From: Hypoxylon rubiginosum
Lineage: Eukaryota > Ascomycota > Sordariomycetes > Xylariales > Hypoxylaceae
Length of the DNA: 64,000 nucleotides
Direction of reading: 5' to 3'
NCBI GenBank assembly: GCA_902806565.1
Contig: CADCXA010000055.1
Span: forward strand, 1,488,001 to 1,552,000
Part shown: positions 5,825-64,000 of the stretch, piece after piece
How positions within the stretch are numbered: the first letter of the stretch is position 1
Layout of the letters: the number at the start of each line of letters is the position of its first letter
Made by a program: the position numbers and the translations under genes
Notes under the pieces: model-generated
What the model was told of the DNA's origin: nothing
What the model saw: only the letters and a program-made list of their open reading frames with translations
Databases searched by the model: none

Positions 5825-6003
5825 TGTTGGATCTCGAAACGATCCTCTGAAAAAAATAGCATAATTTATTATTGTAAGAACTTCGGAAACCAGCTAGCTA
5901 CTTTTAACTTAAGAATCCATTTGTACGTAAACTATGTAACTAAGGTTAAGTTACTTCCTAATCGGGCTTATCTAAGCTTATTTTAAATGCTTTTAAATAT
6001 TTT
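5825..6003 (+). repeat. Left LTR-like direct repeat
   Basis: This aligns without any gap to 16562-16740. By hand I count about 37 differences in 179 columns, all transitions. In the first ~80 bases this copy keeps the G/C state nearly everywhere; in the last ~75 bases it is the mutated copy. It thus decays toward the inside of the block. Homology seems to continue beyond 6003 with indels. Confidence 0.8.
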
Positions 6004-9000: not shown

Positions 9001-12000
9001 AATATTATTTTTTTTACTTACTAATTATTATAAAATATTAATAAAAGGTTAGTTCTTTTAAATTATTAAATTTTATAATTTTAATCTTTTATATATTATT
9101 AAATTTAATACTTAATTTAATAAGGATTAATTAACTTTTTTATATTTTTTTTTTTTTTTTTATTATATTTATTTATATTTTATTATATATTTCTTTTCTT
9201 TACTTATTTAGTTTTTCCCTTTAAATCAATTTATTTATTAGAATTTTTAATTTATTCGCCTTTTTAATTATTTAAATTAATTTAGTTTATTATTTAAATA
9301 TAATTTAAATAAGCGTTATATTTATTTTTTTTATTTTTTTTATATTAATTTAATATATTATTATTAAAATTTATTCTAATTATTAATTTAAATTCTTATA
9401 GTTATTTATTAATACTTATTTATATAATTAAATTATAAATAATTTTATAAGTTACTTAATAAATTTATAATTTTAAAAAATATATATTAGTTTATATTTA
9501 ACCTTAGTTTTATAATTTTTAAAATATATATTTAAAATTAATAATTTAAAATAAGGTTTATTATTTATATAAACTTATTATAATATTTTAAATATACCTT
9601 TAATTTATTAAAATAAATAGATTATATATACTTATTTTATTTTTTTTTTACTAAATTTTAAATTAAATTTATTAAAATATTTATTTATTAAAAAAATATA
9701 TTATATATTATTTTTCCCTAGTAAATTAATTAGTTTTATATAATTAAATATTATTAAATCTTATAATTATATAATTATTATATTTTATAGTTTTATTATA
9801 ATTAAAACTTTTAAATTAACTTTTTTATAAAAATAATAAAATTAATAATATTTTTTAATATTTAAAAATTAAATTAATTATTAATAAGTTTTAATTAAAT
9901 TACATATAATAATTATAATTATATAATACTTATAATTATTATAAGTTTATTTTATAATTATTAAGATTTTTTTTAATATAAAACATTTAAATAATTCTTT
10001 ATTTTACTTGATTTTATATAATGTTTTTTATTAAATTTAAAATTTAATTATTTATTTTATTATTTATTAGTAAGTTACTTTATTTTAACTTATAATTATT
10101 ATAAACTTAATTATTAAATATTAAATAATATTTTTATATTAAAAATATTTATATTTTATAATTAATTTATTATTTCTTTAATTTATTATTATATTTATAA
10201 AAATATTAGTAATTTTAAAAGTTTAAAATAAAATAATTAAATAATTATTTTTAATTTTATTTTAATTAAACTAGTTTAAATGTTTTTATATTATATTTAT
10301 TATTATATTATTTATTTAAATTTTAATAACCCTTAAAATAATAAAAAAAAGTTTTTTTAAATTAAAATACTTTAAAGGTTAATATATTAATTTTAATAAT
10401 TAAGAAAGTTTTTTTATAATTTTAATTATTTTTAACGTATTTAGTTAATATTATATAATAATCTGGTATTTTTTTAATTATTTTAATTAAATTGTAACTT
10501 AATTTTTTATATTTAATTTATAGTTAAATATATTTAATAAATTTAAATAATTTATATATATTATAATTAAAAAAAAAAAATTAATAATTATTTATTTATA
10601 TTTTACTAGTGTTTTTATTAATATAAATATTTCTTATTTTTTTATTTAATACTAAGTTTTTAAATCTAATAATTTAAATAAAAAAAATATAATTATATTT
10701 ATTAAAAATATTATATTATTATTAATTATTATTTTTATAAAATAATTATTTAATTAAAATAAAATATTTTTTACCTTAATTTTAAATATATTTATTACTA
10801 AATAAAATTATTTAATTAATTCTAGATTTTTAATTACTTGATTTTAAATTTCTTTATATAAAATAATAAATATTTTTTATTAATTTTCTCCTTATTAAAA
10901 TAATTTTAAAATTATTTTTTATTATATTAATATTTTTCTTTTTAATATTAACTTTTATATTAGTTTTTAATATAATACTCTTAATATTAATTTTAAATTT
11001 ATTTTTTTTAGGAGCTATATTTTTAAATAAAATAACAAATAAAAAAATTCTTTTAATTTTTTAACATTTTTTAAATAATTCTTCTTTTTAATTTATTAAA
11101 TAAATTAGTTATAATATTTTATTAATAAATGAATTTTTTTTTAATTTAATTTAAATTTAAATGTTTTAACTAAATTAATAAATAAAACTATTTTTTATAA
11201 TATTAATTTTAATTTTATAAATTTAATTCTAAGAAAATAATAATAATATAAAAAATTAAACATTTTATTATAAATTTTTATTAATATATTATAATTATTT
11301 ATAAAAATATTAAATAAAACTTTTTATTCTAAATAATATTTTAATAATAATAAAATAGATAAGCTTAAACTTTTTAATAATAATAATTATTTTTTAAATT
11401 TAAAGTTTTTAAATATATAAAAAATATAAAATGATTTTATTATATTTTATAATATTTATATATTTAAATACTACTTATTTAAAATAATAAATATAATTTA
11501 ACTTTAATATTTATATATTATTAAAATTATTTAATATTTATAAATTATATTTTTTTAAAAAAATATATTATAATCTTTTTAAATTAAAATATAAAATACT
11601 ATTTATTAATTATAAATAAGTTATTATAATTTAATTATAATTAAATTTATTAATTTAAAATTTATAATTATTTTTTTATCGCTTAATTTCTTAAATAAAA
11701 ATTAAATATAAACTTTTTAAAGTAATATTTCTAAATAAATTAATCTTGTTATTTTTATTTAAAGAAAAATTTATAAAATAAATTTCTATTTATTTACAAT
11801 GTAAAATAGTTATTTAAAACAATATAAAATTACTTTTTTTTTAAGTTTAATAATATGTTTAATTAAATTTATTACTTTTAAATTATTTAATATTTTTATA
11901 AAATAATCTTTTTATATATATAATAATTATTTCGTTTAATTTTATTAATTTAATATTTATACCGTTTTATTAATTTATAATTTTAAGTTAATAAACTAAT

Positions 12001-15000
12001 TATTAATTATTTTTTACGATTCGCCATTTAATAATTTTTATTATAATTATTAATTTATTTAAAGTTATTTTAAATTTAATTAATATAAAATATTATTTAT
12101 TAATTAAATTTAAATATTTATAACTAAAATCTAATATATATTCCGTTAGTTTAATTAAAATTAAATATTTATATATATTATTATTTTTATTAAACGGTTA
12201 TTAATAATATTAAAATTAATTTTAAATAACTTATTATAATTAATAACTTTTAATGTTAATTATTTATTGTTTTTATTATTTAAAATTAATATTATTTATC
12301 TTTTATTATTATAAATATTTATATATTATAATAATATTATATTTTTATTTTTTAATAATTTTTAATATTAAATAAATAATATATTTTTTATTTAAATTTA
12401 ATTATCGTAAAAAAGTTTATAAAATATAAATAATATTAATTTTATATTTTTTAATGGTTTTATATACATTTTTAATTAATTATTTAAATTTAATAAAATA
12501 TATATTTTTACTTTTTAATTTATATTTTTTAATATAATAAATAATAGTGCTTAAATTAAAAGTTAATAATTTAATAAATTTAAATTATATTTTATTATTA
12601 ATAAATCTAAAAGTTAATTTATAATCTATAAATTAATAAATAATAGATTTTATTTAATTAATATTAAAGTAATATTATTAATAAATAATAATTTTATATT
12701 TATTTTTTTTAATTAAAATAATATTAAATATAATATTATTTTTTTTAATATTTTTAAAATATAAATATTAATATCAGTAAATCGTATTTACTTTTTTAAA
12801 TAATTAATAATTAAATATAATTAATTTAAGTTTTTAATATTATTTTAAATTTATTTTAAACATAAACTTTTTATTTATTTTTTAATTAATTTTTAGTTTT
12901 TTAAGTTTTAATAATTATTATTATTATAAATTTAATAATATTAATTATTTTTTTAAATATATCCTTGTTATTTAAATTATAATTAATTTTTTTATTGGTT
13001 AATTTATTATTATTTTTTTAATTTTCTTATTATTTTTCTTATTTAAAAATTTCCAAATTATTATTATTTTTTTATATTAATAGTTTTTAATATATAATAT
13101 ATTTAAATTAATTTAAAAATAGTAATTATTTAATTAAGTGTATTTTAATAATATATTTAATGTTTTTAATTTTAATAATAATTAATTAATTAATAATAAA
13201 ATTAATATAAGTTTAATTTTAACGTAATTATTTTTTTTTAAATAAAATATTATATATTTAATTTTAACTAGTTATATAAATTTATATAATTAATAAAATT
13301 TCTTTAACTATAAATAAGAAAATTATATAATGTAAAATTAAAATTATATAATTATTTATTATTTTTAATTTATAATTTAAATATATTAATAATAATTTTA
13401 ATTTTAATTTAATTATATATTAAAAACTTATAATCTTAAATAATAATTTATAATTTATTAAATATTATTAAATTATATAAAAACTATTTAAATTAATTTT
13501 TTTTATAATATATTTTAATTAAATTTAATTATTATTTTATTTAATTTATATTAAATATTTATTAATTAATTTATTGTTTAATTTTTTAATTTTTATAACT
13601 TAAATTATAATTACAACTAAATAAAACTTATATTAATTCTTTTTTTTTTTAAAAACAATTAATTTAAATTTATAACTTTTTAATATTAAATTTATTTTAT
13701 ATGTTAATTATATTTAAATTAAAAGTAATTAATTTAAAAGTTATTTTTATATTAATTAAAAGAATAAAATAAATTTTAATAATTTTTTAATGTTTAATTA
13801 ATTATTTAAATTATTTTTATAAGTTTAAATAAATATAATATTTATTTTTAATTTTTTTATTTATTAAATTTATAATTATAATTTAGTTTTTATTAATTAT
13901 TATATTAGTTTTTTTTTTATTAATAGTTTTAATTTAAAAAGTTATATATTTAATTTTACTATTAGTAATTAATAAAAATATAATAAACCATTTTAACAAT
14001 TTACTATTAAAATCTTTTTTTTAAATAAGTTAACCTAACGTTGTTTTTTATTTATAACTATTATAATTAATTTAAGTTTAATAATTATAATATAAATATT
14101 TATTTTTTTAATTTTTAAAATATACTTTTTATTATTTTTAATTAAAAAAACTAGTTAATTTATTTTTTAAATTTATATTTATATAATATATATAAATAAT
14201 AAATCTTTTATTATAACTTTTCCAGCCGATTTAATTTACTATAAATTTATTATAAACATTTTTTTTTTTATAAAAAAATTATATTTTAAATTACCTAGTA
14301 ATAATTCCTTATATTTAATTAATTTTTAAATTTATATTTACTTTAAATAAAAACGTTACTTATAATTATAATTAAAAAAAATATATTTATTAATTATATA
14401 ATTATAATAAATAATTAATTAATTTAAAAGTTTTTATAAAATTATATAATTTTTTATTATATATTTTATTTTATTATAATTATAATATATAATTATATTA
14501 TTATGTTTTTTATAGTTATTTTTATTTTTATTTTAATTATATATTTATAAATTTAAACTTTATTTTATATTTTATTAATTTTATAAATACAACGGTTTAT
14601 AAAATATATTTTATAATATTTAATATTATTATTTTATATTTTAATAGTATTTTTATTATTTTTATAGTTAAATATATATATTTATAAATTAATAAAATAG
14701 TTATATTATTATTATAATAAAAATAATATAAAATATTAATATTTAATATATTAAAAATATAAGATAATAAAAAAATAAAACGTTTTTAAAAATTTAATTA
14801 ATTTAATTTTAAATAAATTTATTTAATATATTTATATTTATTTTTAATATATTTATATTTAAAGTTTTAAATACTAGTTTTATTTTTTATATAATTTTTT
14901 TATTTAACATTTAAAATTAATTATATAAACTAAATTATAAATTTATAAATTTAATTTTCTTGTTTTATTATATTATTACGTTTATAATAATTTTTATTAT

Positions 15001-16561
15001 ATTTTAATATATATATTTTTTTATAAATTTATATATTTAATTTATTTTTTTATTAAATATTAACTATATTTTAATTAAATTCTATAATATCTAATTTTTA
15101 AACGTTATATAACCCTTTATATTAAAATATTAATACGTTTAATTTTAAAAGGTTTTTAATTAGTTTTTTATTATATATTTAACAAGATTATTTACATGTT
15201 AAAAATATATTAAAATTAACTTTTTAATTTTATATTTAAAATAATTAATTTAAAACGTTAATTTTAAATTATAACTTTTTATTATTATAAGAAATTATTA
15301 TTTAAAAAGTTTTTTTAACTTTTTTTATTTTTTTTAACTTAATTTAAATAAATTTAAATATTAAGTTTAAATGTTTTTTTTTAATTTATAATTAAAATAA
15401 GTTAATTATTATTAGTTTTTATTTTTATTAATTATTAAATTAAAGAAATTATTTATTATAAAAAACTTTATATTATAAATATATTTTTTTAATAACTTTT
15501 TTAATATTTTAATAAAGATAAGATTTAATTTTTTTATAATAATAAAAAATTATTTTATAGTAATAATTAATATTAAATTTAAAAATTAATTTATATTATT
15601 TAATATATTTAATTTAATTGGAATAATTTTTAATTTCGATGTTTTTAAACTCTTTTTTAATTTTAATTTTTTTAGCTTTTTAATTAATATTTTAATTTTT
15701 AATATTTTATTTATAATTTTTAAAGGTTTAATTTAAAATGTTTTTAAAACAGGTTTTAAATTTATATTATATATTAAACTTTTTATTAAAAGATTTTTTA
15801 ATTATTTTATAATTATTATAATTTAATTATTTTTAATTTATAATAAGTTAAATAATAAATTAAAGTAAATTATTATAATAAAAATAATTAATTTTAATGT
15901 TTAATAATTAATTTAAATTTAATTTTATATATATAATAAATTAATTTTAAAATTTATTTTTAAATTTTTACATTTTATAATAAAAATAAATTAATTTTAA
16001 ATTTTTTTAAAAAAAATATAATAATAAATAAAATTTATAAATTTAAAATAATTTTATAGTTAATTTAAAATTTAAATATATTTTTATAATTAAAATAATT
16101 TAAATTAAAAATTTTTAAAAAAAATATATTAATAAGTTAATTTTATAAAATAATTAAAATTTAATATTATAATTTAAATTAAAAAAACACGTATTATTTT
16201 TATATTATAATTAAAATTAAATTATTATAATAACTTTATATTTTAATATTAAAATTAAATAAAATATATAATATTATAAATTAATTTAATAATAATTAAA
16301 TAATAATATATAATATTAATTATAATAAATTTTTATTTAATTTAATTTATAATAATTTATAATTATAATAATTTTATATTAATTAATAATTCTTATATAT
16401 TTTACGTTTTTTAAATATTAATAATTTTTTATAAATAATATATTAATTTAAAAGAAAAATTCTTTTTTTATATATAATTAATTAATTTAAAAATATTTTT
16501 ATTAAAATTATAATAAAAAACCAAAAAAATAATAAAATAAAAATTATAACTTTTATTATAA

Positions 16562-16740
16562 TATTAAATTTCGAAATAATCCTTTAAAAAAAACAATATA
16601 ATTTATTATTATAAGAACTTCGGAAATTAGCTAGCTACTTTTAACTTAAGAATCCATTTGTACGTAAACCACGTGATTAGGGTTGAGTCACTTCCTAATC
16701 GGGCTTATCTGGGCTTATCTTGGGTGCTCCCAGGCACCCC
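16562..16740 (+). repeat. Right LTR-like direct repeat
   Basis: Partner of 5825-6003, in the same orientation, 10,737 bp downstream. Its inner (left) end is the mutated one and its outer (right) end is GC-normal, ending in CCCAGGCACCCC where the left copy has the fully transitioned version. The LTR probably extends somewhat further right into 16741-16900. Confidence 0.8.
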
Positions 16741-32531: not shown

Positions 32532-35500
32532 CAGCAGTTGAATCAAATCAATCATATAATTAGTTTAATTAACAATTAACTTGGTACAAACCAGTAAATT
32601 AGGAAATTTTGGAAATTTAATCAGCCCAATTAAAAATTTTTTTTAATTAATTGCGCAATAAGTTAAAAAAAGCCACAGCGGACCCACTTATTACCTAATT
32701 CAGTATAAATATTATAAGTTTTAAAACTAATATATTATATAACTTTTATTTTATTTTTTATATAATTAATAACTTAATAAAATAAAAACGTTTAATTAAA
32801 TATTATATTTAAAAAACCTAAAAAATAAAATAATTAATATATATTAAATTTTAATTTTTATTTAATTTATTTATATATTATATATTATTTAAATATTTTA
32901 AACACGTTATTTAAATATTAAAAACACGTTTATTATATATATAACCTTTAAATTTATTTAAATATTTAATAATATAATTAATAAAAATTACTATATATTA
33001 ATCTTTTTTATAATTTTATATAAATTTTAATTATTTATAAAATTTTATAATAATTAACGTTTTTTTTTAATTTAATAATAATTAAACTTTATTATAATAT
33101 ATAACTATTTAATAGTAAATATTTAATTAAAAAGTTATATTTTTAAAAAATATTATATAATAAATTTTATTATATATTATTATTAAAAAATATAAATATA
33201 TTATAAACATTTAATTTTAAATAAACGTAAACTTAAATATTTTTAATTATAAAAATTATTTTATTTTTATTATAAATAAAATTAATAAAAATAAAAACAT
33301 TTAATTAAAAAAAAAAAGTAAAATATAATTTTATTATTATTATAATAAATAAAATAAAATTAAAATATTTTAAAACATTTTAATTTTAATTATATAAACT
33401 TATTTTATAGTTAAATTTTAAACTAGTTATAATATAACTTTATTAAATAAAAATAATAAATATTTAAATATTAAAAATATTAACTTATAATTAAATTTAA
33501 AAATTAAAAAGTAATTATAAAATTAAATAAAATGTTATTTTATATTATATATAATTATAAACTTTAAAAAACTTTTAATTTAAACTATTAATATTTATAA
33601 TATCTTTTTTAATATAATAATTAAAATTAAAATTAAAAGATTATTTATTTTTTTTAACGTTTAATTAATTAAAAATCTATTTTTAAACTTAAATAATATA
33701 GTTAATAACTAATTAATTAAAACTTTTAAATTAAGTTATATAATTATTATTTAATAATTTTATTAACATGTTATTTTAAAAATTTATTTATTTTTTAATA
33801 TATAAATATCTTTTAATAAAAAAGTAATAATAATAATAATAACTTATTATATTAATAAAAAATAATAATAATAAACGTATTTAATTATTTTAAAATATAT
33901 TATAAAAAATTATATAAATAAAAATATAATAGTTTATTTAATTAAAATTATTAAATTATATAATATTAAAAATAAACTTAATAATTTTACGTTAAATAAT
34001 ATTAATAATTAATAAATATTTAATATTTTAAATATAATATTATTAATTTATTATAATTAATAATAAAACTTTTAAAAGTTTATTTTATTATTTTAATTTA
34101 AATTTTAATAACTTTAAATTAATTATTAAAAATTATTAAATTTATTATTATAATTATATATTAAACATTATAATATTTTTTTTTATATAAATTAAAAAAG
34201 ATATTAACTAAGTTATCGTGATATTAACTATTAAAAAAACTTATTATATATTAAAATTTATTTATAAAACCTTATAATAATAGTTAGTATTTTATAAATT
34301 TATTAAATTAAATTATTTAATTAATAATAATATAAATATATATATTTTTATTTTTAAAAATATCGTTAAATTTATTAATAATATTAATTTTAATAAGTTT
34401 ATTATATTTATAAAAAATATTATTTTGAATAAGTTATTAAAATCCATTTAAAATAAATAAGATTTAAAAAAAAATATTCTAAAAATATAAAATAAAAAAA
34501 TAATAAAAATATATAATAATATTAAATAAAATTTTATATTTATTAAAGTTAATAACTTTTTAATTTTTAAAAAAACTATAAATAACTTTTATTATAAATA
34601 TTATTATATAAAAAATATTAATTTAAAAATCTTAAATAATTATAAAATAATAATTAAGGATTAAATATATTTTAAAAAAATATATAATATATTTTAATTA
34701 TTTAAATCCGTTATATTATAATATAAAAATAACAACGTTAAAATTTAAAATATAATAATTTTAATATAAAAAATTAAAAAATATTTTTATAAATATTTAG
34801 TTAAATATAATATATTTAAAAAAAATATTAACAATAAAATATTTTTATTAATCTTTAATTTATTAATTAATATTTACTAATTAATTATAAATTAATCCTA
34901 AAAATTATTACTTATAATAAATAATTTAACCGTAATTTTAACCTTATTTTTAAACGTTAAAATAATAAGTAAACTTAAAGATAAGGAAACTTATTAAATA
35001 AGGATTTAAAGTTAAATATTATTTTTATATTTATAAATAATAATATATAATTAATAAAAATAAAGTAAATATTATAAACCTTAGTTTTAAAATAATAATA
35101 AAAATAAAAACAAAGTTAATAAAAATTTATAAAAAAATATAAAAATATTATATAAAATTTAATAAAACTTTAATATATTAACTAGTTATAATATTACACC
35201 CAGTTAAAAAATTAAAATATTTTTATATAAATAATTAAAAATTAACTAAAAAAATTAAAAAAATATTATAAAATAAGTAAAAATAATATACCGATTTATT
35301 TATAATAAATATCTTTAATATAACCTATTAATTAAAAGTTAAAAAAAATTAATTAAATTTTATAAAACTTTAATTAAAATTAATATTTAATATATATAAT
35401 TTAAATAATAATAATAATAAAAGTAATAAGCTTAATAAATATCTTATAATATAATAAACTAAATATTTAAAAATATTAAATAGTTTATTTAAATAATAAT

Positions 35501-36825
35501 AAAAAAAATTAAACCGATTTTTAAAACTTTATTAATTAGTTTTTAATATCTTGTTAATTTTAATAATATTAATTAAATATAAATATATATTTAATTAATA
35601 TAAATTAATAATTATATTATAATATAATAACTTAAAAATATTAATATTAAAAATATTATAATATATAAAAAACTAATATAAAAATAATATAATAAAATTT
35701 TAAAAAATAATAAATAAAATAAAAACTATAATAATAAATTTAAAACTAAAATTAAAATTAAATTTAAACTTAAAATTAAACTTAAATTTAAACTTAAATT
35801 TAAATTTATTAATAAAATTAATAATAATTTTATATAAAATAAATATTAATAATAATTATATAATAATAAATTAAAATAATAATATATAATAAAAAAGAAT
35901 TTTAAAATAACAAAGTTTATAATAATTTATAGTGTTTTAAATAAATAAGTAAATTAATAAAAGGAAAAAAAAAAAGTAAAATTAAATATAAAGTTTAAAA
36001 ATAAAAAATCTTATTTTTATAAATAAATATAATAATAATTTATTTATAAGTTAATAATAATACTATAAATTATTAAGCTTAAAATAAAAACGTGTAATAA
36101 AAATATAACTTATTAATTAAATTATTAAATTTAAAAAAAAATTATATAATATAATATAACTTATTAAATAAATTATTAAACTTAAAAAAAAATTATATAA
36201 TAAAATATAATTTATTAAATAAACTATTAAATTTAAAAAAAAATTACATAGTAAAATATAACTTATTAATTAAATTATTAAATTAAAAAAAAAAACATAT
36301 AATAAAAAATAAATTATTTAATTTAAAATTATAATAAAATTAATAATAAAAATATTTATAATAATTTTTAATATTATAATTAAATTATATATAATAAAAA
36401 AACATATAATTTAATAAATAAAAAATATATTAAATTATTTTATAAAAAATATATTATAAAAATTTTATATATAAATATATATAAATATATATATAATAAA
36501 TATATAAAAGTATAATAAAAAATAATTTTTAAATAATAAAACTTATAATAATTCTTAATGTTTTAATAAATATAAAAAAAAAAAATATAAAAAATAAAGT
36601 TAAAAATTTAATTAAATATCCAGTAAAACTCTTAATATTGCAGGCCCGGGCCAATATATACCCGAAATATAAGTCCTGGGAAGCCACCTTATTGGTCGGA
36701 TATATTAAACTAGTTATAAATACCTTTAATCAATTATATATTATTCATATAATATATTTGATTTGACTCTATTCAATCCAAATAAAGGTCTTTTGATTGA
36801 CTTGATTGAATTGATTCAACCGCTG
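32532..36825. mobile_element. hAT-like DNA transposon, RIP-degraded, 4,294 bp
   Basis: Both ends are clear. The left end starts CAGCAGTTGAATCAAATC and the right end read on the minus strand starts CAGCGGTTGAATCAATTC; over 24 bp they differ at three positions. Each end abuts the same 8 bases (CCGCCGAT). An 8-bp duplication and CAG-starting inverted ends define the hAT superfamily. The interior is almost all A+T and has no ORF, as after heavy RIP, while the outer ~100 bp at each end keep normal composition. The plus strand is A-rich, opposite to the first AT block, so the lost transposase was probably on the plus strand. It sits in exon 1 of the dioxygenase gene. Confidence 0.88.
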
Positions 36826-53500: not shown

Positions 53501-56500
53501 TCAAGCACCCCTCCTCGCTCTCGTATCAGCACCAAGATAATCGATCGGGTTACGGCACAGGGGACACGTGTTCTGGTTGCTGCTCTGGAACCACTTGTAC
53601 AGGCAGGTGCGGTGGAAGAGGTTCCTGCACGTCTGGCAGCGCTTGTCCGGCATCTTCTTGTCGGTGCTGATGATGCTGTAGCAGATGGCGCACTCCGTCT
53701 GCCCCTTCATCGCGCCGACGATGTTGCGCCGGAAGGTCGCGAGACCGTCGATTATGCTCCCGCCCTGGCAGTCGTGTGGTGTCAGCTTATCGAGGTCCGT
53801 GGTAGAATGAAGAAATAAGGCAAAAGAAAAAAAAAACTTACCGAGAAAGTGATTACGCCCTGAGTCGTCATAATCCAGCTCTGCCATTTCCTCTCGTTGA
53901 CCGCTACACGATTAATGCCGGTTACGGTGACCCCTTCGAGCGGATATTCTTGTGGAACGCGTATTGAAATCGAGGCTTGCTGTTCGTCTATCTCGTACCC
54001 GGCCACAACCTCCCTGGCAGTGCGGCTAACCTTGACAATCAATTCCTTCTCATCCTCCGCCGGTGGCTCCTGGGTGTCTTTCCAAGTATCAACATCATTT
54101 AGTGCATCTAATATGATAATTGGGGAGAAATATTTCGCCATCCAACTGGCCACGGCGATCTTTGTCTGCTTAGAACGGCACTCAATGTACCATGCCTTGA
54201 AGATACCAGGTACGTATTTCAGCACAAGGTAATACAGATGAATTAGCAGCCACTGCATATTTCTCTCATCGTTTTCGGCTTCGGCAAGCTTGATGTCGTA
54301 TTTTCGAATCTGATCCTCTGTAAAATTGGCCCTGTCTAGACTTAAGGGATGGGCTGCTGAGTGCCCAAGGACATCGAAAGTGAAATCCATGAGAGGGCCG
54401 ACATAATTAGCCGTTTTGAGGTTCTCGGCGTAGTCACTTCGAACTTTGAAGGACGCTGTTCTAAACGCGTCAAAGACCAAGTGCCACGAGAGTAGATAAG
54501 AGCGAATTGACGTCGGGAAATGGGCAAGGACATCATCAGAGTATGCCTCGAGCGTTGGCGCGTCGAGAAGAAGGGACAAAAGCTCATCGGGAAGTTGAGC
54601 ATCCTTCTTCTCCAGTAGGACGTCTAAAGATAGTTGTTCCTGAGCTGCCGGGAGTGCTTTGTGAAGAAGAGTGAATGCCGCCGTCTGGATAGCACGCGAG
54701 TCACTAGCTACCAGTCCATATATCTCGGAAAGATCTTTGACATGATGTAGAGGGAGCTTTTCGACCTGACGACAAATGATAGAATCCACAATTTGTAGGG
54801 GTTGCGTGTCCTTCACCCTATGAAGCTTCAGCAGCTCTAGTAATGCAGCTGATCTACTCTCTGCCGTAGATTGTAGGATATCGGTAAGATCGTCATTGGG
54901 GTCTTCTAGTGATTGTAGAATGATAATCAGGCGGAGGGAGGAGTGAATCTCGGGCAACCGACAGTCAAGAGATTGAATTATCGGTTTCGTCCATAGGTAC
55001 GTGCAAAATTCTATAGTTCTATCCCAGTAAGGTCCATATACGTCCTTGATGCATGGGAGGAGGCGCTGGAGAGAACGACAAGCCTCTGCCGCGAAACGAT
55101 AATCAAGGTCTTCAGGGGTTTCGAGCCACGTCGTGATCTGCTTGACCGCAAAAACCAGTCGATTGTTTGCAACAGGTAACTCCCCAATGTCGTATATCTG
55201 CATGCAAGCATTGAGGAGTACGAGGGTGACGAGACTTTTTTCCTGGCCGAGATTCGCGCCTGCGACGTCGCTGACCAAGCGATTGCAAAAGTTGCTGACG
55301 ACCCTTGACGCGGATACCGATTCACCTAGGCCACCAAGAACTGCAATGGCTGGGAGGGTCGTCGATGGGTTGTTTTTCAGGATATCCAAGCTTGTTAACC
55401 ACTGCTCCCCACTAGACGGGAATCCATGTATTTCGGCCAGTGACTGGACTAATTCACTAAGGGCTCGCGCATAATACAGGCTCATTGGCGTTAGGGACCT
55501 TGCTTTGTCAATGAGTGTCCGAACAAGGTCGTGTACTAACCCAGGTCCATCCCTCCAATGGTCCGAATCCGTGGTTAGACCATTGAAGAACGACCGTACG
55601 GATGAAATAAGGTCCTCGGCAGCTGATAGAGAAACCTTAGTGGAAAGTGAGGCCCAGATCTTGTTTTCATCCATGACTGTCAGTTGATCTGCTGCTAACC
55701 CCATCGTTAGACTGAGGTTCACTAGCACATCTACCTGCCTTGCAACAGGTAGGTAATGGAACTGAAATCCTTCGGTAAGCAGCTTGATAATGTAAATTGC
55801 CATTCGTCCAGGGATTGAACACCCCTCTCGATCTCGTCGTACAGATATACTCGATGTAGTTGACGATGTTACGGGGAGAAAATAAGCGCCACCGAGGATG
55901 CTTGTGAGAGCAAGGGACGGGTTAAGCGTCTCTTGTAAGAAGCATTCCAATTCTTGCCTCCATACATTTGTGTCTGGCACTAATTGCTCCAGTTGTTCGC
56001 TGCGAACTACGTCGGTAGCCGAAGTATGAGCCTGCATAGCTTGCTGAACAAGAGTATCGACGCTAAAAACAATCAATAACAACACGACAATAACTAGGAG
56101 AATGACTTACGCGAGTGAATTTAGGTCAGCGTTTGAAATGCTTTGCTGGATGAGACCAAGTGTGCGATGACTGTTGGTGGAAGGATTATCCATCAGCTGT
56201 TTTAGCGTCGCGATATCAGAGGTGACATCAAACCGCTCGGATAAGCTGAGCAAGTTGGTCATCAAGTTCATATGAGTTTCTTCGTCCTGGATTAAGATAT
56301 CTGGCTTCTTTTCTGCTATAAGGCGTAAACCCTTAACCACCCCTGGATTGGGCTGGCCTAAAGCGTTCGTAATGCGACCTCCGAGCTCTTTCGCCAACTG
56401 CCTTGCGGCGGTATCCGTTAACGTACCATATGTAAACACGGCGTCGAAAAGGTCCCATCCTAGGTTTGTGTCGTTAACGGCACATGATAGACACCACTGT

Positions 56501-58592
56501 ATTAGCTCTCCTTCTAGAGCTTGGATCTGTTGGGTGAGAGTGCGAGCATATTCTGTGGAGATTAGCGTCGTAAGCGCTGGCAACGCTCCGGGTTGGTCTG
56601 TCTGGTCTAAGAGGGCTGTGATGTTCGCTTTCCAAATTTTCTCGTACTCTTGCTGCTGTTCAGGAATTTGGCCCAGTAGGTTAATACTCGAGAAGATGTA
56701 GGCTGCGGCGGGCGATTGGAGGAGCTCAACTTGGTTTTCTGACAACAGGCCCTCCAGATAGCCGAATACTTCGTTTGCGCTTTCCGAAGATTGCCTGAAG
56801 AGTCGCGGCGATTGTCTGAAAGCTGATTCCACGGTCGCAGCGGCTCCAAATGGCTTCCAGTTCCTTGTTTTCAGCAACTTGAAGACATCCTGAAGCAGTT
56901 CTAAGGAATATATGGCAGGCAAATTCGGAATCGGGCGGTCAGTGCCAAGTGTCTTCTCGTGAGCCTCCGAAATCAAGCCCGTTAAAGCGAACCATCTGTT
57001 GCCCTCGTCGGCCACTGATTTTTGGGATTTTTCATACTCCTTGGATGCCTCCGGCAAGGAATTCCGCACACGATCTCTGAAATTCCCTTTCCACTGATTC
57101 CATTCCGATCTCGTCGCTTCTACCACTTCTTCAAATGGCGAAGTCGTTGTCGAAGTGTACGCTTTAATGAGAATAGTAAGTTGGCTCCCGGAAGCCCATA
57201 TCGATGTTTCAGGGGTTGGATAGAGGTAGTGCGCAACGAGGGGGAAAATGTTTTCCTGTACTAATTTAACTCGATCCTCACCGGACTGCACTGTCGTTAT
57301 AAACCGTCGAGCAGTGTTGAGGTATGTCGACCAGCCATCAACAGCGTTGCTGCGAGGTTCCTCTCTACTAGTAACACCTAATCTCATGGATTTCAAAAAT
57401 CCTTGGGCGCCATCTAGGTTTTCCGGGAGTATGCTGGCAGGTATAACTTCCAGTAAACTGTTAAGCGAAATCCAGAATTTGGAGGTGCTACCCTGTGAGC
57501 CCCTCTCGAGGAAGCCTTTTAGCCTAGAGGCCAACGACTTCTTCCCACGATACTCGGACGTCCAAGTAGTCGGGTGCTTTACAGTTAGCTGAGTCAATAC
57601 GCATATGTACTCTGTCGCAGATCCAGTCTGGTTGCTCTTTAAGCCCTCCCCAACGAAAGTCTTGCTGAGTCGGGCAAGGTCCGCTGCGGTCCTGCCCGAT
57701 CGTTTCTCCAGGCATGCAGATAGAAGTTGGCTGGATAATCGTCTAACGACAGCGTCATTGATAGTCACACTCGCCCAAACTTTGTCCTGCTCGAAGAATT
57801 GATCATATATGTCCTGGCATTTCTCAAGATCCGAAAGACCAAGCTTTTGCAAAAGATTTAATACCAGGGCCAGGCTACTACCTAGGACTCGATGATACTT
57901 GGCTTCTGCATCGTCGGCGTTCGTAGATCGCTCGTCGCTCAGCGTTTCCGCGGTCTCCTTTATCGCATCAGATGCATATTCCAGAATCTGTGGTTGGCAC
58001 CGTCTCCAGAATTGGGTCACTTTCTCTGGGGTGGTGAGAAAAGAGGATAGCCCTTCCGTAGCGGCGCGAGAGACAGCCTTGTCCCGGTCGAAGGTACCAG
58101 CAAGCCAGGACCCGACAATTTTGGGGACACGTCGTTCCATGCGCTTGCGCGCAGACTTCATCGATTCGAATTGTAATATATGGGAGAGTTCACGGACGCG
58201 GCGGGAATTGTCTATTGAGATGCGAGGATATATTTGGACCTATAATACATATTACTAACTAAGCACGGAAATGGATATATCTGCCGTATAAGACGTACCC
58301 AAGCTTCTAGGATGGGTTCCTCTGTGCCGCCATCCTGTTCGTAGGGATGCGCCTGGACATATGTCACCAGCTCCTCGAGGGCTTTCGCCTTCGTCGTAGC
58401 ATCCTTCTTCTGTAGATTCTTGAGCGACACAACAACATTGGCATCAGATACGGAAGAGAGGTCGGGCGGTTCGGCTAGGTAGGAGAGGTCGGTACCCCTA
58501 GCAGCGGTCGAGAAAGCGCCGAAGGAGCTGGCACCGAAGCTCGCGGGGGTCTTGCTGCTAGCAGCGCGCGACTTAAGGGGCTTGCGACTCAT
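53501..58592 (-). CDS. LTN1: E3 ubiquitin ligase listerin (Ltn1/Rkr1)
   Basis: Exons on the minus strand are 58592-58299, 58239-56111, 56062-53842 and 53764-53501, giving 1,635 residues, the normal size. The N-terminus (MSRKPLKSRAASSKTPASFG) leads into the conserved NTD (SSVSDANVVVSLKNLQKKDATTK is part of it; SIDNSRRVRELSH follows across the first intron). The middle is HEAT/ARM-like helical repeat. The end has the RWD-like region (VRVPQEYPLEGVTV with ERKWQSWIM) and a C-terminal RING-CH: CAICYSII, CQTC, FHRTCLYKWF, CPLC. Ltn1 binds stalled 60S-nascent chain complexes and ubiquitinates the nascent peptide with Rqc1/Rqc2/Cdc48 in ribosome-associated quality control. Confidence 0.95.
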
Positions 58593-59197
58593 AGTAGCGG
58601 GAGGGGTCGCTAGATTCGTGAGATCATATAGATATCTCTCATTGGCCCTCAAACCCCTATTGTGGTTCAGTGGAAATCAAACGAGAGTCGGTATGTATTC
58701 TGTTCAAGATCAAGACAAAAAAGAATGTGTTGAAGCTAACCTTGGAACTTACCTAAGCTAAGCTTAACAGTCAGAAGTCAGAAGTGAATATTCGGGGATA
58801 CAGCTCAGCCGACCATTGACCCGCTTTGGACCTGACCATTGACCCGCTTATTTGTATGTGGCGGGGTGCCGACCACTGACCATTGGGATCTGACCTGACC
58901 ATGGCCCCATGGTCAGTCTTGGCATTTATTAATAGAGTACTCAATAACCCCTCCATATCCTATTAACCACTTTCACTCTAGTGGCTCCATTTATATAAGC
59001 CAATTATACACAAGAAAAGCATAGACCAATAGTCAATAAAAGTAATTGCTATGCCCAAATTAAAATGATACCAAACTTTCCTTTACACATACTTTTACCA
59101 TAATTTGACTAACTACTCAATAAGTACTCATTGAGCATTTAATATAAAATTTATTCTATTGGGTAATTACTAAAGTTACACAGCCCTATTCACTAAT
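58593..59197. other. Listerin promoter and left end of the MULE-like element
   Basis: The first ~180 bases are listerin upstream DNA. From about 58780 the sequence changes to short repeats of GACC/GGTC words and then to GAGTACTC motifs, which I take as the left subterminal part of the mobile element. The exact border and target duplication were not found. Confidence 0.5.
58811..58915. repeat. Subterminal direct repeats and a perfect palindrome
   Basis: GACCATTGACCCGCTT occurs at 58811-58826 and again at 58834-58849, perfect over 16 bases. Related GACCACTGACC/CTGACC words follow. A perfect palindrome, TGACCATGG CC CCATGGTCA, spans 58896-58915. Such repeats near a transposon end often serve as transposase-binding sites. 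Confidence 0.75.
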
Positions 59198-61257
59198 ATG
59201 GCACCATTACCTTCTACATCCTACAAACACAAATCTGTAAGTTTTTATTCATTTCATAAGTACTATATGAGTACTCATTATGTTTTATAGGAAGGATACA
59301 AGTGGTATCAGGCTCACGAAACACGACCAGATAATGTATCGCCATTCGATATGATCGTAAGTTCTATATTTCTTTTTGATAACTCGATGAGTACTCATTA
59401 TATATCAGGGTGCGGATCAAGTCGTTATTCCTAATGGTGAATGCTTCTGTCGATTCAACATGAATCACAACACCGACGCTGATATTCAGTTATGCTATCG
59501 CACGGTGAGTCATATATGAACACTTATGGGGTACTCAATAAGTGCTCATTAACTTTGAACAGGACAAGATATTACATTGGAGTAACCTTAAGCGCCATGT
59601 TGAGTCACATCGTGTCATCGTCGACGGGAATGATGTGGAGATTCGACTGGCGAAGAATCGCAATGGCGGATTGACACTGCATGATCATGCTGTATTAATT
59701 AGTAAGTACTCATCGAGCAGTATAGAACTCGTATCAGCTAATGAACCAATATAGCATACTGGGACTCGGTGAAGAAGGACATCGACGAGTTCAACCCGAA
59801 CACCGCGGCTAGTTCGGTGGGAAAGACACCATTCCGGCCTGATACGCGGCCTCTCCAAGCCCCAAAGCAGAAGGATCTCAAGTCAGTTCCTTTCACGAAG
59901 GCTCGCAAAAACTGCGCAGCTCATGTAAGATATATCAAGGACTTTTCGAGTACAAATTGAGCTAATCTATTATAGCCTAACCTGAAATCTATGAAGCTTC
60001 TGGCGGGACAAAAGAAAAAGGCCTGCGAGGGCTGTATCGAGGCCGGAAGGAGTTGTAAGTGATCACTCGATAAGTACTCAATGAATAACTAACTGGTGTT
60101 TAGCTTGTCCAGAGGTACGCAAACCGGACTGCCATCTTTGGATGCAGTTCTTAGAGACGAGGCGAGAGAGACGTGCCCGCCCCGATGAAACCGACGTAAG
60201 CGACGACGATTCAAATCATGCCCATACCATCGATAGCAAGGATGCGGAGAGTAAATCTATACCCGAGCACCAGCCAACTCTTCCAAGAGAGCCCTCAATG
60301 AGTGTCTCAATGAGTACTCAACAGGGTCACCAACGGGCTGGCAGCAAGACTGTCCTGCTGTCTGATGGTTCTGCCCGGATTTTTGACTCTATTGCGGATA
60401 TCGAGGCCGCGGAACGTCAGCAAGCTACGGAAGCAGAGACTGAACGTCATGGAATGATGCAGCTGCAATCCTTCCAAGAGATGATATCCCATCCTGAGCT
60501 TCAAGATGAGGTAAATCAAGAGTTCCTATTTGAGGATGATCCCCTGCTGCAGCAGGAACGAGAGTTCCAGCAGCAGGAACAAGAGCGCCTGCAGCAGCAG
60601 CAGGAGCAGGAACGCCTGCTGCAGCAAGAACGAGAGTATCTGCTGCAGCAGGAGCAGCAGGAACAAGAGCGCCTGCAGCAGCAGCAGCAAGAGCAGGAAC
60701 GCCTGCAGCGAGAGGAACAAACTCGCCTGCAACAAGAAGATCAAGAACGTCTGCAGCGAGAAGAGCACGAACGCCTGCAACGAGAAGAGAACGAACGCCT
60801 GCAACGAGAAGAGAACGAACGCCTGCAACGAGAAGAGCAGGAGCGCTTACAACAAGAAGAGCAGGAGCGCTTACAACAAGAAGAGCAGGAGCGCCTGCGG
60901 CAACAGCAAGAACAAGAGCGCTTACAACAAGAGCAGGAGCGCCTGCGGCAACAGCAAGAACAAGAGCGCTTACAACAAGAGCAGGAGCGCCTAAACGAGC
61001 AGGAGAATCGCGAGACTCACGAGAATAACGAGTTAAATGGAGAAAAACAACAGGAGCCCGATACGCGCCCAATGAAAATAAGACGTGTAGAGAAAAAAAC
61101 GTTGTCCACTGAGCCGAGGAAAACTCGTTCTGCTACTAAGAGAGAACTTGAAGAGTCCTTATCAAATGCTTCACGGGAAACCACCGAGTGTTTCACGACG
61201 CCGGAGGGAGCTAACGATGACGATGCAGCCGCGCGACAGCTTCAGGATAACGTATAA
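59198..61257 (+). CDS. Accessory protein of the MULE-like element, unknown family, Cys/His clusters and Q/E/R repeat
   Basis: Seven exons: 59198-59236, 59291-59356, 59409-59504, 59563-59701, 59755-59924, 59976-60054 and 60104-61257. They join in frame to 580 residues with GTAAG/GTGAG donors and TAG/CAG acceptors. Residues 1-~235 hold two possible metal-binding areas: GECFCRF...LCY...LKRHVESH, and CEGCIEAGRSCPEVRKPDCH (Cys-x2-Cys-x6-Cys-x7-Cys-x-His). An acidic linker follows; then ~150 residues of Q/E/R/L repeats (about 395-545) predicted as long helix or coiled coil; then a basic, Arg/Lys-rich patch (PMKIRRVEKKT) that could be a nuclear signal. I recognise no family. The layout (putative DNA- or RNA-binding N-terminus plus multimerising helix) suits a DNA-binding partner of the transposase or a regulator of the motif array. 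Confidence 0.75.
60546..60993 (+). repeat. In-frame tandem repeat coding QEQERLQ units
   Basis: Repeats of CAG/GAA/CGC/CTG codons encode overlapping units such as QQEQERLQ, LQREENERLQR and RQQQEQERLQQ. Neighbouring copies are identical for up to about 50 bases, so the tract is likely to vary in length between strains. Confidence 0.85.
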
Positions 61258-61741
61258 GTGGCTAGAATAGGGAGAGTGGGTTTTGAGTGCTCCATGTGCT
61301 AATCATGGAGTATTCAATAAGTACTTAAAAGTGTTTATGTGGCGTTCTTTTCATTACGAGTAAACGGACGATATCCAGGTAGTAGGGCAGTTTTAACGCG
61401 TTCAACGATACCCATTGCTATGATAGTCTAATTTGACCAATACCTTTCGAGTACTTGATGAGTACTTGATGAGTACTCATGGAATATAAAACCAGTTTCC
61501 ATATGAAGCACTCTCATTTATCTTTGCTGACGCATTTACAATTGAATTACCATAATAATTAAGCAATAAAAGGGATTGCAATAAAATTCCAAATTCAACA
61601 TATATAGTTAATTACTTCTATGCCTATTTGCAAAATGGAAGTTCACGGAATAAAGCATCCAATACATTATAACTAAATACTCGTTAAGTACTCATAGAGT
61701 ACTCTATGAGTAGTTAATGAGTATTCTATAACAAAAAATAG
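61258..61741. other. Convergent gap between accessory gene and transposase
   Basis: Non-coding, AT-rich, with three clusters of the GAGTACTC motif (near 61310, 61450 and 61680). The densest are three to four units in a row. No ORF supported. Confidence 0.65.
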
Positions 61742-64000
61742 TCAAATACCCTCCGCCCTCCGTCTCTGTTCAAGATCATACCTAGCCTGATCCAGCCGCA
61801 GTCTCCTCTCCTCAAGCTCAAGCTCCCGCTCTTGACGAGCAAGGACTTCATCATAGGCATTGCTTGTCGCGTCTCTTGCCATGGAACTGAGAGGTATCAG
61901 TAAGTGCTCGATATATACTCTTCGAGTACTCATTAAGTACTCATAATAACTTACCTGCGACTTCGACCTCCTCTACGCCCGGACCCAGGCGTGCTATGGA
62001 CAGGACTCAATGTTCGACGTGGAGTGGGCGTCCTCGGGACACTAAGGGATCGTTGAGTACTCCCAGAGGCATCGGAAAGCGGCGAGGATCTAATTATTTG
62101 CTTCCTGGCTTTTCGTTCGTCACTTGATTGTCGCTGACGGGTAGTTCTTTTCACTGTACTGCAAATTAGTACTCTGCAAGTACTTATTCAATACTTATGG
62201 AGTATTCCATCAAAATTAGGGGCACTTACTTTGCGCTTTAATGGCATTGCTCCATCGTGTATCCAATGAATGATTCCTTTGACCGTACCGAATGCCGTAC
62301 CGCTGATATATATCGGCTTGTTGGATACGACGAGCATCATATTCGGCGTTAACCTGAACAACTACAAATACCGGCTTATACCTGCCACTAGCATGATAAC
62401 TAGCATGATGGAGCGATTCTACCGCGTTCGTACTTCTAGACATCGCATGCCAGTCGGCTTCGTCGATATCGGAACAACACCTCGCGAGCCCTGATGCGAT
62501 TTCAGGAATTCTCTTATGTTTAACCCAGGGGATTATCCCAGGGTAGTTACTGGTTAATGTGTCCTCAGCTGAAGTAGTATTAGTGTATGCTTAGTACTTA
62601 TTAAGAACTCTATGAGTACTCACAAATTATCTTTTCGCAAGTACCGTGATAATCAGACTCCGTCTTGGCTTCAGGTAAGTGGATGAGGATATCGTATATG
62701 GAATTCTGGAATCTCGGCGTATACTCCCCTAGCAGCTTTCTCACATTTCTCTCGTAATGAACTCTGCAGAAACGAACGGAGCGTTTGTGATGATAGAGCC
62801 ATCCACGGCGTTCTGGGTCCAGATGCTGCGATACGAAGTGTCCCCATGCTATATACAATTAGTACTTATTAAGTACTCAATGAGTACTTATAGAGTAGCT
62901 AGTCGCAACTGACCTTGAAAAATGCCCCATTCCATATCGAACGTAAACCCGAGAATACCAGTTCCGTGGAGATGCTTTAATTGAATCTCTCTACCAGTGG
63001 CAGAGTGAACAGTTGAAAAGACATTCTGAAACATGAAGAAGTACATATCAGGGCTCTGCGAGTTTGTGATTACTCGGAGTGTTACCTCGGCTATAGAACG
63101 GTTAATCTTTGATAAGTACTCATTGAGTACTCAGAGACTACTCGTGGAGGGGCAAATGGGGAACTCACATCTTCGCGATACTTCATCGTAAAAAGCCCAA
63201 ATTATCTCGAACTGGCCACCTATGAGGTGCTTGAAATTCATATCTACTTGGAGTGAGATATCTGGAGTCTGAAACAAGAGTAAAAGTTGCTCGACATAGA
63301 ACAAAATAACCATGAAATTCGTGTTATCATCGTGGAAGAATTGAATATACTGCGGAGCAAATAATCAACTTAGCAATAGAGTACTAACCGAGAGTTCATC
63401 GAGTACTTACCTTGTTTTCGCTGTCCTTGTGATTCAATTCCCATTCATACCGCAAGGCGAGGCGCGAAGAACCTAGAGGATAATGTATAGCCCGTTCCTG
63501 GCGAATGATACGACGTAAGGCATCATCGTTAGTAAAATAGGGGTGAATCTCGGCGAACGTTTGACTATTAAACTCTCTCAGGAACTCCTGACACGCCTCG
63601 CTCCTGAGAAAAGTCCCTAATACAATTAATATGTACTCAAAAAGTAGTTGTTTAGAGCTTCGTGACCTACCGAGGGATCCATCACGATCGCCCGACTTGC
63701 GAATATACTGAATAAACCGCCGTACCAAGCTCTTAGGTTCACGATTTGGAGTGGGCGGGGGGTGTTTATGCTCACCATGGATCGAAAGAAAAAACCATGG
63801 GTATTTCTTGCGGTCGCATGGGATATGCCATTTGAATATCACATCACATTTGAGAGGTATTAGTTGCGGAGGAGTATCAACGGTGTGAAATGTGTCTGAC
63901 GAGATGTTAGTGAGTCCTTAAAGAGTACTCATGAAGTACTCCCTAAACTTACTGCACAGTTTACCCCTCCCAGACGTCCCAGCAATTGTCCCACAATACT
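61742..64000 (-). CDS. MULE-type transposase, partial at its 5' end
   Basis: At least nine exons on the minus strand: 64000(or beyond)-63953, 63895-63671, 63616-63411, 63349-63169, 63090-62914, 62848-62624, 62568-62230, 62153-61955 and 61886-61742. All joins keep the frame. Motifs in order: a GCM1/WRKY-FLYWCH-like DNA-binding segment (FKWHIPCDRKKYPWFFLSI, then HGEHKHPPP); first catalytic Asp region LQVDMNFKHL with FEIIWAFYDE; HLHGTGILGFTFDMEWGIF; RFCRVHYERNVRKLL, the MULE CxxH helix; and the SRSTNAVESLHHASY segment seen in fungal MULEs near the catalytic Glu. A C-terminal basic Ser/Arg tail and a charged helix (ARQERELELEERRLRLDQA) follow. No stop or frameshift is seen, so it may be active or domesticated. 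Confidence 0.8.

What the first reader, a model, noticed from the sequence alone, without database searches (positions are those of the whole stretch)
58780..64000. A MULE-like element with an accessory gene and a self-specific motif array: possible fungal anti-silencing or self-recognition system
Seen: two convergent intact genes (transposase and an unrecognised Cys/His-plus-coiled-coil protein) in DNA whose non-coding parts all carry a short palindromic motif (GAGTACTC, often in ~10-bp phase). Known: Arabidopsis VANDAL MULEs encode VANC proteins that bind short motifs scattered in their own non-coding DNA and remove silencing. Inference: the accessory protein or the transposase recognises this array to activate the element or shield it from RIP or heterochromatin. 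It stands out because other repeats in this window are RIP-saturated and this one is clean. I know of no such system described in fungi.
Basis: partly seen in the sequence, partly recalled or inferred. Interest (0 to 1): 0.92.

Follow-up and report, generated by a model that had tools for sequence, protein, structure and literature searches.

The report
Fungal jumping gene tagging its DNA
A recently active two-gene fungal transposon carries a short palindrome, repeated every 11 bases, throughout its introns and other non-coding DNA, and gene-less relatives carry the same arrays, which looks like a self-recognition tag resembling a plant anti-silencing system but is untested.

Summary
The element is 6,993 bp (58794 to 65786, cut by the window end), with ~210-bp inverted repeats and 8-9-bp target duplications; the genome holds seven copies without a substitution. 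Two convergent genes encode a 926-aa transposase and a 580-aa zinc-finger-like accessory protein. Relatives of both lie on contigs of equal length, with near-consecutive numbers, in Hypoxylon sp. FL0890.

GAGTACTC-like sites fill the non-coding DNA (17 of 17 introns within 2 mismatches) at exact 11-bp spacing. Phased AGTACT pairs number 91 genome-wide against 2 for a control; about 88 lie in this family. Six gene-less ~1-kb relatives share the ends and, in 4 (one RIP-mutated copy included) by blastn or as RIP-altered arrays, little else. A RIP-destroyed 6.9-kb relative has phased arrays too; four canonical MULE loci in the genome have none.

Best reading: an element-encoded protein, probably the accessory one, reads the array to recognise its own family, working like Arabidopsis VANC. 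No homology to VANC is shown, and MULE membership rests on anatomy. RIP shielding is not supported: 3 of 6 gene-less copies and the 6.9-kb relative are RIP-destroyed, and the clean copies may simply be new. Binding and anti-silencing are inferred.

The parts
58794..64000 (.). Transposon copy; 6,993 bp in all, continuing to 65786 beyond the window
   Evidence: Seven copies in the genome, boundaries by comparison of copies, target duplications
58786..58793 (.). 8-bp target-site duplication GAATATTC (left copy)
   Evidence: Repeated directly after 65786
58794..59003 (+). Left terminal inverted repeat, ~210 bp; outer 123 bp match the right end at 118 of 123 and hold GACCATTG three times
59198..61257 (+). 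Accessory gene, 580 aa; exons 59198-59236, 59291-59356, 59409-59504, 59563-59701, 59755-59924, 59976-60054, 60104-61257; Cys-Cys-His-His module and a four-Cys cluster
   Evidence: Splice model; relatives
59237..60103 (+). Six accessory-gene introns (59237-59290, 59357-59408, 59505-59562, 59702-59754, 59925-59975, 60055-60103), each with a GAGTACTC site within 2 mismatches
60530..60998 (+). 24-bp repeats coding a Q/E/R-rich, probably coiled-coil stretch; 60881-60928 is the 48 bp present in 4 and absent in 3 of the 7 copies
   Evidence: coiled coil is my reading of the sequence
61298..61727 (.). Array between the convergent genes (phased cores at 61450/61461/61472 and 61687/61698)
61742..64000 (-). 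Transposase gene (start codon at 65208, beyond the window), 926 aa, 12 exons
   Evidence: Splice model; 53% identical to Hypoxylon P0002 over its length
61887..63952 (-). Eight transposase introns inside the window (61887-61954, 62154-62229, 62569-62623, 62849-62913, 63091-63168, 63350-63410, 63617-63670, 63896-63952), each with a site within 2 mismatches
59259..63940 (.). Runs of AGTACT cores exactly 11 bp apart: 59259/59270; 61450/61461/61472; 61687/61698; 61925/61936; 62168/62179; 62861/62872/62883; 63115/63126; 63924/63935 (one more at 64660/64671 outside the window)
   Evidence: Core positions; 11 pairs per copy

Best explanation
A recently mobile two-gene DNA transposon uses a self-recognition array. 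A zinc-finger-like, probably dimerising accessory protein made by the element binds GAGTACTC palindromes placed one DNA turn (11 bp) apart throughout the element's introns, gene flanks and gene-less relatives. Dense occupancy tells 'self' from host DNA, where sites are too sparse, and keeps family members transcribable and mobile, most likely by opposing heterochromatin, as VANC proteins do for VANDAL elements. Shown: element, genes, array, family specificity, arrays in members that otherwise share only the ends. Indicated: linkage of accessory and transposase relatives in another genus. Inferred: which protein binds, that it dimerises, and that the outcome is anti-silencing.
For: Phased pairs 91 against 2, about 88 of them in this family. 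Enrichment in non-coding DNA and in all 17 introns. Gene-less members share ends and arrays but no other blastn match with the element at E 1e-3. Phased arrays in a RIP-destroyed 6.9-kb relative, 13 pairs against 0.04. Four canonical MULE loci have 0-1 AGTACT in 3.1-3.3 kb and no pair. Accessory relatives in five Xylariales species beyond this genome, with C49, C64, H79, H83 invariant in 8 of 8 rows; Hypoxylon P0002 and P0004 on contigs of 865,070 bp with numbers 267543 and 267540. Same layout as VANC21 targets: introns, intergenic and terminal non-coding DNA, high density needed (passages of PMC5735166). Four clean copies against three differ only in the accessory repeat.
Against: No binding or silencing data. 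No homology to VANC shown. Arrays did not save RIP-destroyed members. The Q/E/R repeat that I read as a dimerisation part is not in the other accessory relatives. Transposase relatives were found in only one other species against five for the accessory protein. Exons hold 4 exact motifs. No DNA of relatives in other species could be examined, so it is unknown whether they have arrays.
Confidence: 0.4

Rival explanations
1. Transposition cofactor: the accessory protein or the transposase binds the arrays to fold or pair the element for excision, as TNPA does with subterminal repeats of En/Spm (recalled). No silencing is involved.
For: Arrays are kept in gene-less members that depend on transposition in trans. 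DNA-binding accessory proteins are known in cut-and-paste elements; mudrB of maize is reported as needed for integration and mutB of Mutyl as DNA-binding (passages of PMC6446971).
Against: Arrays are spread through all introns and the middle of the element rather than set at the ends; the outer 123 bp have none and hold their own GACCATTG repeats.
Confidence: 0.25
2. Host-factor array: a host transcription factor reads GAGTACTC and drives or times expression of the element; the accessory gene does something else.
For: Arrays flank and fill both genes. The genome has other genes with the first accessory module at C50 and C53.
Against: Genome-wide the motif is at background (503 against 451 for the reversed pattern, 112 of the 503 in the seven copies), so no host regulon is evident; gene-less members also carry it.
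Confidence: 0.12
3. Intron function: the arrays act in RNA, for splicing or retention of the element's introns.
For: Highest density is in introns; in four introns the site overlaps the 5' splice site (GTAAGTACTC or GTGAGTACTC).
Against: Arrays also lie between the convergent genes and in gene-less members; the palindrome reads alike on both strands.
Confidence: 0.06
4. RIP interference: an 11-bp array, bound by protein or not, disturbs the homology search of RIP, which can sense triplets at 11- or 12-bp period.
For: RIP sensed triplets at 11 or 12 bp in one assay (passages of PMC4858203). Seven identical 7-kb copies are un-mutated in a genome with DNA-methylase genes and extreme AT-rich blocks. 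The two clean Gypsy loci tested had one exact copy each.
Against: RIP-destroyed members with arrays; in them motif cytosines are mutated like the rest (CA 15 of 15 and CT 25 of 30 inside, 168 of 174 and 157 of 212 outside). The same paper saw other periods work best in a second assay. 11 bp is simply about one helical turn. A burst since the last sexual cycle explains the clean copies.
Confidence: 0.05
5. No function: tandem slippage spread a neutral 11-bp repeat through tolerant DNA.
For: Short tandem units; arrays sit where mutation is tolerated, and most exon sites lie in poorly conserved stretches.
Against: Separate sites in all 17 introns, the same unit in otherwise unrelated gene-less members and in a RIP-destroyed relative, none of note elsewhere in the genome.
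Confidence: 0.08

Closest known systems
VANDAL21 / VANC21 of Arabidopsis (passages of PMC5735166; abstract of PMC10398659)
   Same: Transposon with a transposase and an accessory gene; short motif at high density in introns, intergenic and terminal non-coding DNA, rare elsewhere; tandem arrays; accessory protein with repeat-bearing variable region
   Different: Motif is a palindrome in 11-bp phase, not YAGTATTAY in one orientation; element has ~210-bp inverted repeats, whereas VANDALs are described as non-TIR elements (passage of PMC6446971); accessory protein not shown to be related; no binding or silencing data
Mutyl with mutB (Yarrowia) and other two-ORF MULEs (passages of PMC6446971, PMC9865632, PMC5014426)
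   Same: Ascomycete element with 9-bp duplications and a second gene given a DNA-binding role; 7.4 kb
   Different: 22-bp ends in Mutyl; I saw no mention of a motif array in the passages read; relation of mutB to our protein not tested (original paper not held)
TET/JBP-bearing DNA transposons of fungi (PMC12730594: abstract and section 4.2)
   Same: Fungal DNA transposons with an accessory gene thought to counter silencing
   Different: Dioxygenase enzyme; no Pfam match of any kind in our accessory protein; no array described in the parts read
En/Spm TNPA subterminal repeats (recalled)
   Same: Element protein reading a short repeated motif in its own DNA
   Different: Those repeats are subterminal; here they run through introns and the middle

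Membership tests
MULE (Mutator-like) superfamily | Target duplication of about 8-11 bp | tested here: met
   9 bp in 5 and 8 bp in 2 of 7 copies
MULE (Mutator-like) superfamily | Long terminal inverted repeats | tested here: met
   ~210 bp, outer 123 bp 118 of 123
MULE (Mutator-like) superfamily | DDE transposase with a C-x2-H between the second D and E (recalled pattern) | tested here: inconclusive
   D541, D617, C652-x2-H655 and E750 are identical in the only two sequences at hand; assignment is mine; structure model too poor (mean pLDDT 36)
MULE (Mutator-like) superfamily | Sequence match to MULE transposase profile or to known MULEs | tested here: not met
   0 Pfam families for our transposase at E up to 1 and for P0002 at E up to 10; hhalign to two canonical MULEs of this genome probability 0.2% (shallow profiles)
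VANDAL/VANC anti-silencing system | Short motif arrayed in non-coding DNA including introns, rare elsewhere | tested here: met
VANDAL/VANC anti-silencing system | Accessory protein homologous to VANC | tested here: inconclusive
   No Pfam match; the named hits in the protein searches are all fungal, two are unnamed; search sensitivity is limited and no VANC sequence was compared
VANDAL/VANC anti-silencing system | Element of the VANDAL lineage, without terminal inverted repeats | tested here: not met
   ~210-bp inverted repeats present
VANDAL/VANC anti-silencing system | Accessory protein binds the motif and removes silencing | not testable with these tools
   Needs EMSA or DAP-seq and chromatin maps
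TET/JBP-bearing fungal transposons | TET/JBP dioxygenase gene in the element | tested here: not met
   No Pfam match in either protein
En/Spm-type TNPA system | Motif repeats confined to subterminal DNA | tested here: not met
   Sites throughout the element

The most novel reading that the evidence does not exclude
A fungal transposon lineage has evolved, independently of plants, a sequence-specific self-recognition and anti-silencing system: a zinc-finger-type accessory protein reads helically phased palindromes written into the introns and gaps of its own family, gene-less members included. At its boldest (perhaps 0.05), occupancy of an array whose 11-bp period equals a period sensed by RIP also delays RIP, giving time for bursts such as the seven identical copies here.
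Probability: 0.33. Interest if true: 0.92.

Novelty: new variant of a known kind. Interest (0 to 1): 0.72.

Why it matters
Sequence-specific anti-silencing by a transposon-encoded DNA-binding protein is known from Arabidopsis VANDALs. A convergent case in an ascomycete with very strong RIP would make general the idea that transposons write recognition tags into their own non-coding DNA, and would offer a haploid system in which to test it. The array also gives a simple search rule (AGTACT-N5-AGTACT) for members of this family and ready probes for binding tests. If the function proves to be transposition rather than anti-silencing, an array spread through every intron would still be unusual.

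Tried and rejected
RIP shielding as a lasting effect: rejected. General MULE motif: rejected; four canonical MULE loci lack arrays (loci of 3.1-3.3 kb that may not span whole elements). Host-wide motif: rejected. An optional 42-bp intron in the transposase (63310-63269) was dropped because Hypoxylon P0002 codes through it. Structure predictions of P0001 and P0002 from single sequences were too poor to use (mean pLDDT 38.9 and 36.4); no fold search was run. PDB sequence searches gave only weak hits that I take for chance (best E 0.016 and 0.3). A viral-contig search for the transposase found no relative. The whole-length alignment of the C8 relative is unreliable outside the ends (42% identity at 5% GC), so it serves only for array spacing. 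DNA of the loci in other Xylariales could not be reached. Literature searches: VANC with anti-silencing 10 papers, with fungi 5, of which 4 listed; Mutator-like with fungi, RIP and anti-silencing 3; Hypoxylaceae with RIP 0; Mutyl and mutB 2; fungal intron motif and accessory protein 11, 10 listed; RIP homology recognition 1; KDZ and TET/JBP 10, 6 listed; MULE with Hop or second ORF 34, 10 listed; RIP escape 2. From the titles, abstract starts and passages that I saw, none describes a fungal array system of this kind; this is limited to one open-access library, and most of these papers I did not open.
Full report
What is there. The window is part of a 48.27-Mb genome in 70 contigs. The finding lies in one copy of a DNA transposon that starts at 58794 and ends 1,786 bp beyond the window (6,993 bp). 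A 901-bp query found seven places at 100% identity. The seven full copies show no substitution over their whole length; they fall into two variants (4 and 3 copies) that differ only by 48 bp, in frame, in a repeat of the accessory gene. Each has its own target duplication, 9 bp in five and 8 bp in two. The inverted repeats are about 210 bp long (118 of 123 outer positions identical); the outer 123 bp on the left hold GACCATTG three times. The copy in the window sits about 200 bp upstream of the likely start codon of a listerin (LTN1) gene.

The genes. The accessory gene has 7 exons and codes 580 aa; the transposase gene has 12 exons on the other strand and codes 926 aa. Neither matches a Pfam family at E up to 1. 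A search of 5.8 billion proteins with transposase residues 150-800 found one relative, P0002 of Hypoxylon sp. FL0890 (F5Y06DRAFT_267543); aligned full length it is 53% identical and supports the splice model. Accessory residues 1-240 found P0001 of Rostrohypoxylon terebratum. A profile search, in which only the 7,994 candidates sharing most words were scored, added Annulohypoxylon (P0003), Hypoxylon sp. FL0890 (P0004, F5Y06DRAFT_267540), Daldinia sp. FL1419 (P0005), Daldinia caldariorum (P0006) and two short unnamed proteins (P0007, P0008). P0004 and P0002 are listed on contigs of the same length, 865,070 bp, and bear near-consecutive numbers, so I infer that they are neighbours. In 8 of 8 aligned rows C49, C64, H79 and H83 (numbers of P0001) are invariant. 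Four other Cys, C192, C195, C203 and C211 of P0001, recur in our protein, P0004 and P0005; in P0003 the first two fall in a gap, and the three short rows lack the region. The long Q/E/R repeat of our protein is not in the other relatives. Frames with only the first module exist in this genome at C50:151923 and C53:816583; P0007 is nearly identical to the first.

The array. GAGTACTC occurs 503 times in the genome, 112 of them in the seven copies (16 each); the other 391 are no more than the reversed control pattern gives (451). The sharper test is two AGTACT cores 11 bp apart: 91 places against 2 for the control. Eleven lie in each copy (77; listed for three copies and part of a fourth, the rest by sequence identity), 3, 3 and 2 in clean gene-less copies (one of the threes by sequence identity), 3 in an end-less fragment of one (C19:150754), one each at C32 and C34, and one place was not listed. 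In the element AGTACT stands at 16 to 28 per kb in introns, 8 per kb in other non-coding DNA and 0.6 to 1.1 per kb in exons. All 17 introns have a site within two mismatches, 14 within one, 7 exact (shuffle means 6.6, 1.0, 0.08). Among pairs of sites with at most two mismatches 24 lie 11 bp apart, 12 lie 22 apart, 4 lie 33 apart and none lies 10 or 12 apart. Exons are not free of it: 4 exact motifs against 0.03 expected.

Family members. A 151-bp query from the left end found 41 places, a lower bound. I examined six complete ~1-kb gene-less members. They share 100-123 bp at the ends with the element; the other blastn matches at E 1e-3 fall in arrays (three clean copies and one mutated copy) or within the ends, and two mutated copies match at the ends only. 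Two clean copies are identical over 979 bp and a third is 96% identical with balanced changes. Against the clean copy the other three show 194-216 changes of C/G to T/A and 1-6 the other way, the mark of RIP. The first array is mutated in all three like its surroundings (17/17, 17/17 and 15/17 C/G in its 50-bp block). The second lies in a zone where mutation falls off toward the right end; a similar fall-off is seen at the left end, where there is no array, so I see no local protection. A 6.9-kb relative at C8 has 5.2% GC, yet its RIP-altered motif is still phased: 13 pairs at 11 bp against 0.04 expected, in ten runs. So the array is an old property of the family. Other end matches (at C22, C21:1419927, C66:841224, C10, C18, C25, C59, C60, C50, C31) were not examined in full. 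Weak, stop-bearing transposase matches at C31, C6 and C19 were not followed.

Is it clean because it is protected? The genome has three loci with DNA-methylase domains, one of a size that would fit RID (738-aa frame; the assignment is mine), and blocks of about 5% GC. Seven identical 7-kb copies should be RIP targets in the next sexual cycle. That they are clean may mean protection, or only youth; Zymoseptoria offers an ordinary precedent of a burst of clean copies in a family struck by RIP before (passages of PMC9970103). Other clean transposon genes exist here: 5 of 10 reverse-transcriptase matches, 1 of 4 DDE_1 matches and 4 of 6 MULE matches have no stop. Of two clean Gypsy loci tested each had one exact copy, with further copies at 77% (two) or 64% (one). 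Clean, identical, multi-copy elements I saw only in this family, but I tested few.

How it most likely works. A palindrome repeated once per helical turn suits a dimeric protein binding along one face of DNA. The accessory protein has a zinc-finger-like module and, in this species, a likely coiled coil. The ends carry repeats of their own that would suit the transposase. The arrays occur in gene-less members, so they act in cis and need no intron; and they fill introns and gaps rather than the ends, which speaks for marking the whole element rather than for synapsis. This is the anatomy of VANDAL21, where VANC21 binds arrayed YAGTATTAY in introns, intergenic and terminal non-coding DNA and removes silencing (passages of PMC5735166; abstract of PMC10398659). 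I therefore favour self-recognition by the accessory protein with anti-silencing as the outcome; a transposition cofactor is the main rival.

Comparison. It works like VANC but is not shown to be related to it. Other fungal elements carry a TET/JBP dioxygenase thought to counter silencing (PMC12730594, abstract and section 4.2), so accessory anti-silencing genes in fungal transposons are not a new idea; an array-reading protein would be. Mutyl of Yarrowia has a second gene; one paper gives its orientation both as the same as the transposase (text) and as antisense (table) (passages of PMC6446971). MULE membership of the present element rests on duplications, ends and a plausible DDE and C-x2-H pattern, not on a sequence match.

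Noticed in passing
window 6001-16700 and 33001-36500: Blocks of about 5% GC beside normal 45-55% GC gene DNA: unusually extreme AT-richness, as expected of very strong RIP.
   Followed up: no
window 58590-58793: This copy is inserted about 200 bp upstream of the likely start codon of the listerin (LTN1) gene (53782-58592, minus strand), so probably in its promoter.
   Followed up: no
window 60881-60928: The only difference among the seven copies is 48 bp in frame in the Q/E/R repeat; both variants have multiplied (4 and 3 copies).
   Followed up: yes
L032 1501-1725 (C66:841224-841448): Two family ends of 123 and 102 bp lie directly head to tail, perhaps a nested or tandem insertion.
   Followed up: no
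L048 (C19:150722-150792): A gene-less member fragment with the array but without the family ends: internal sequence seems to have moved or survived without ends.
   Followed up: partly
L046 (C50:151923-152144) and L047 (C53:816583-816777): Short frames with the accessory Cys-Cys-His-His module alone, no phased arrays nearby; possible host relatives or remnants.
   Followed up: partly
L053, L054, L055 (C60, C10): Canonical MULE transposase frames of 498-751 aa without stops in the same genome.
   Followed up: partly
L045 and L037 (C8:453310-460207): The RIP-destroyed 6.9-kb relative is flanked by near-duplicates CTTTTAAGA and CTTTCAAGA, 8 of 9 alike.
   Followed up: no
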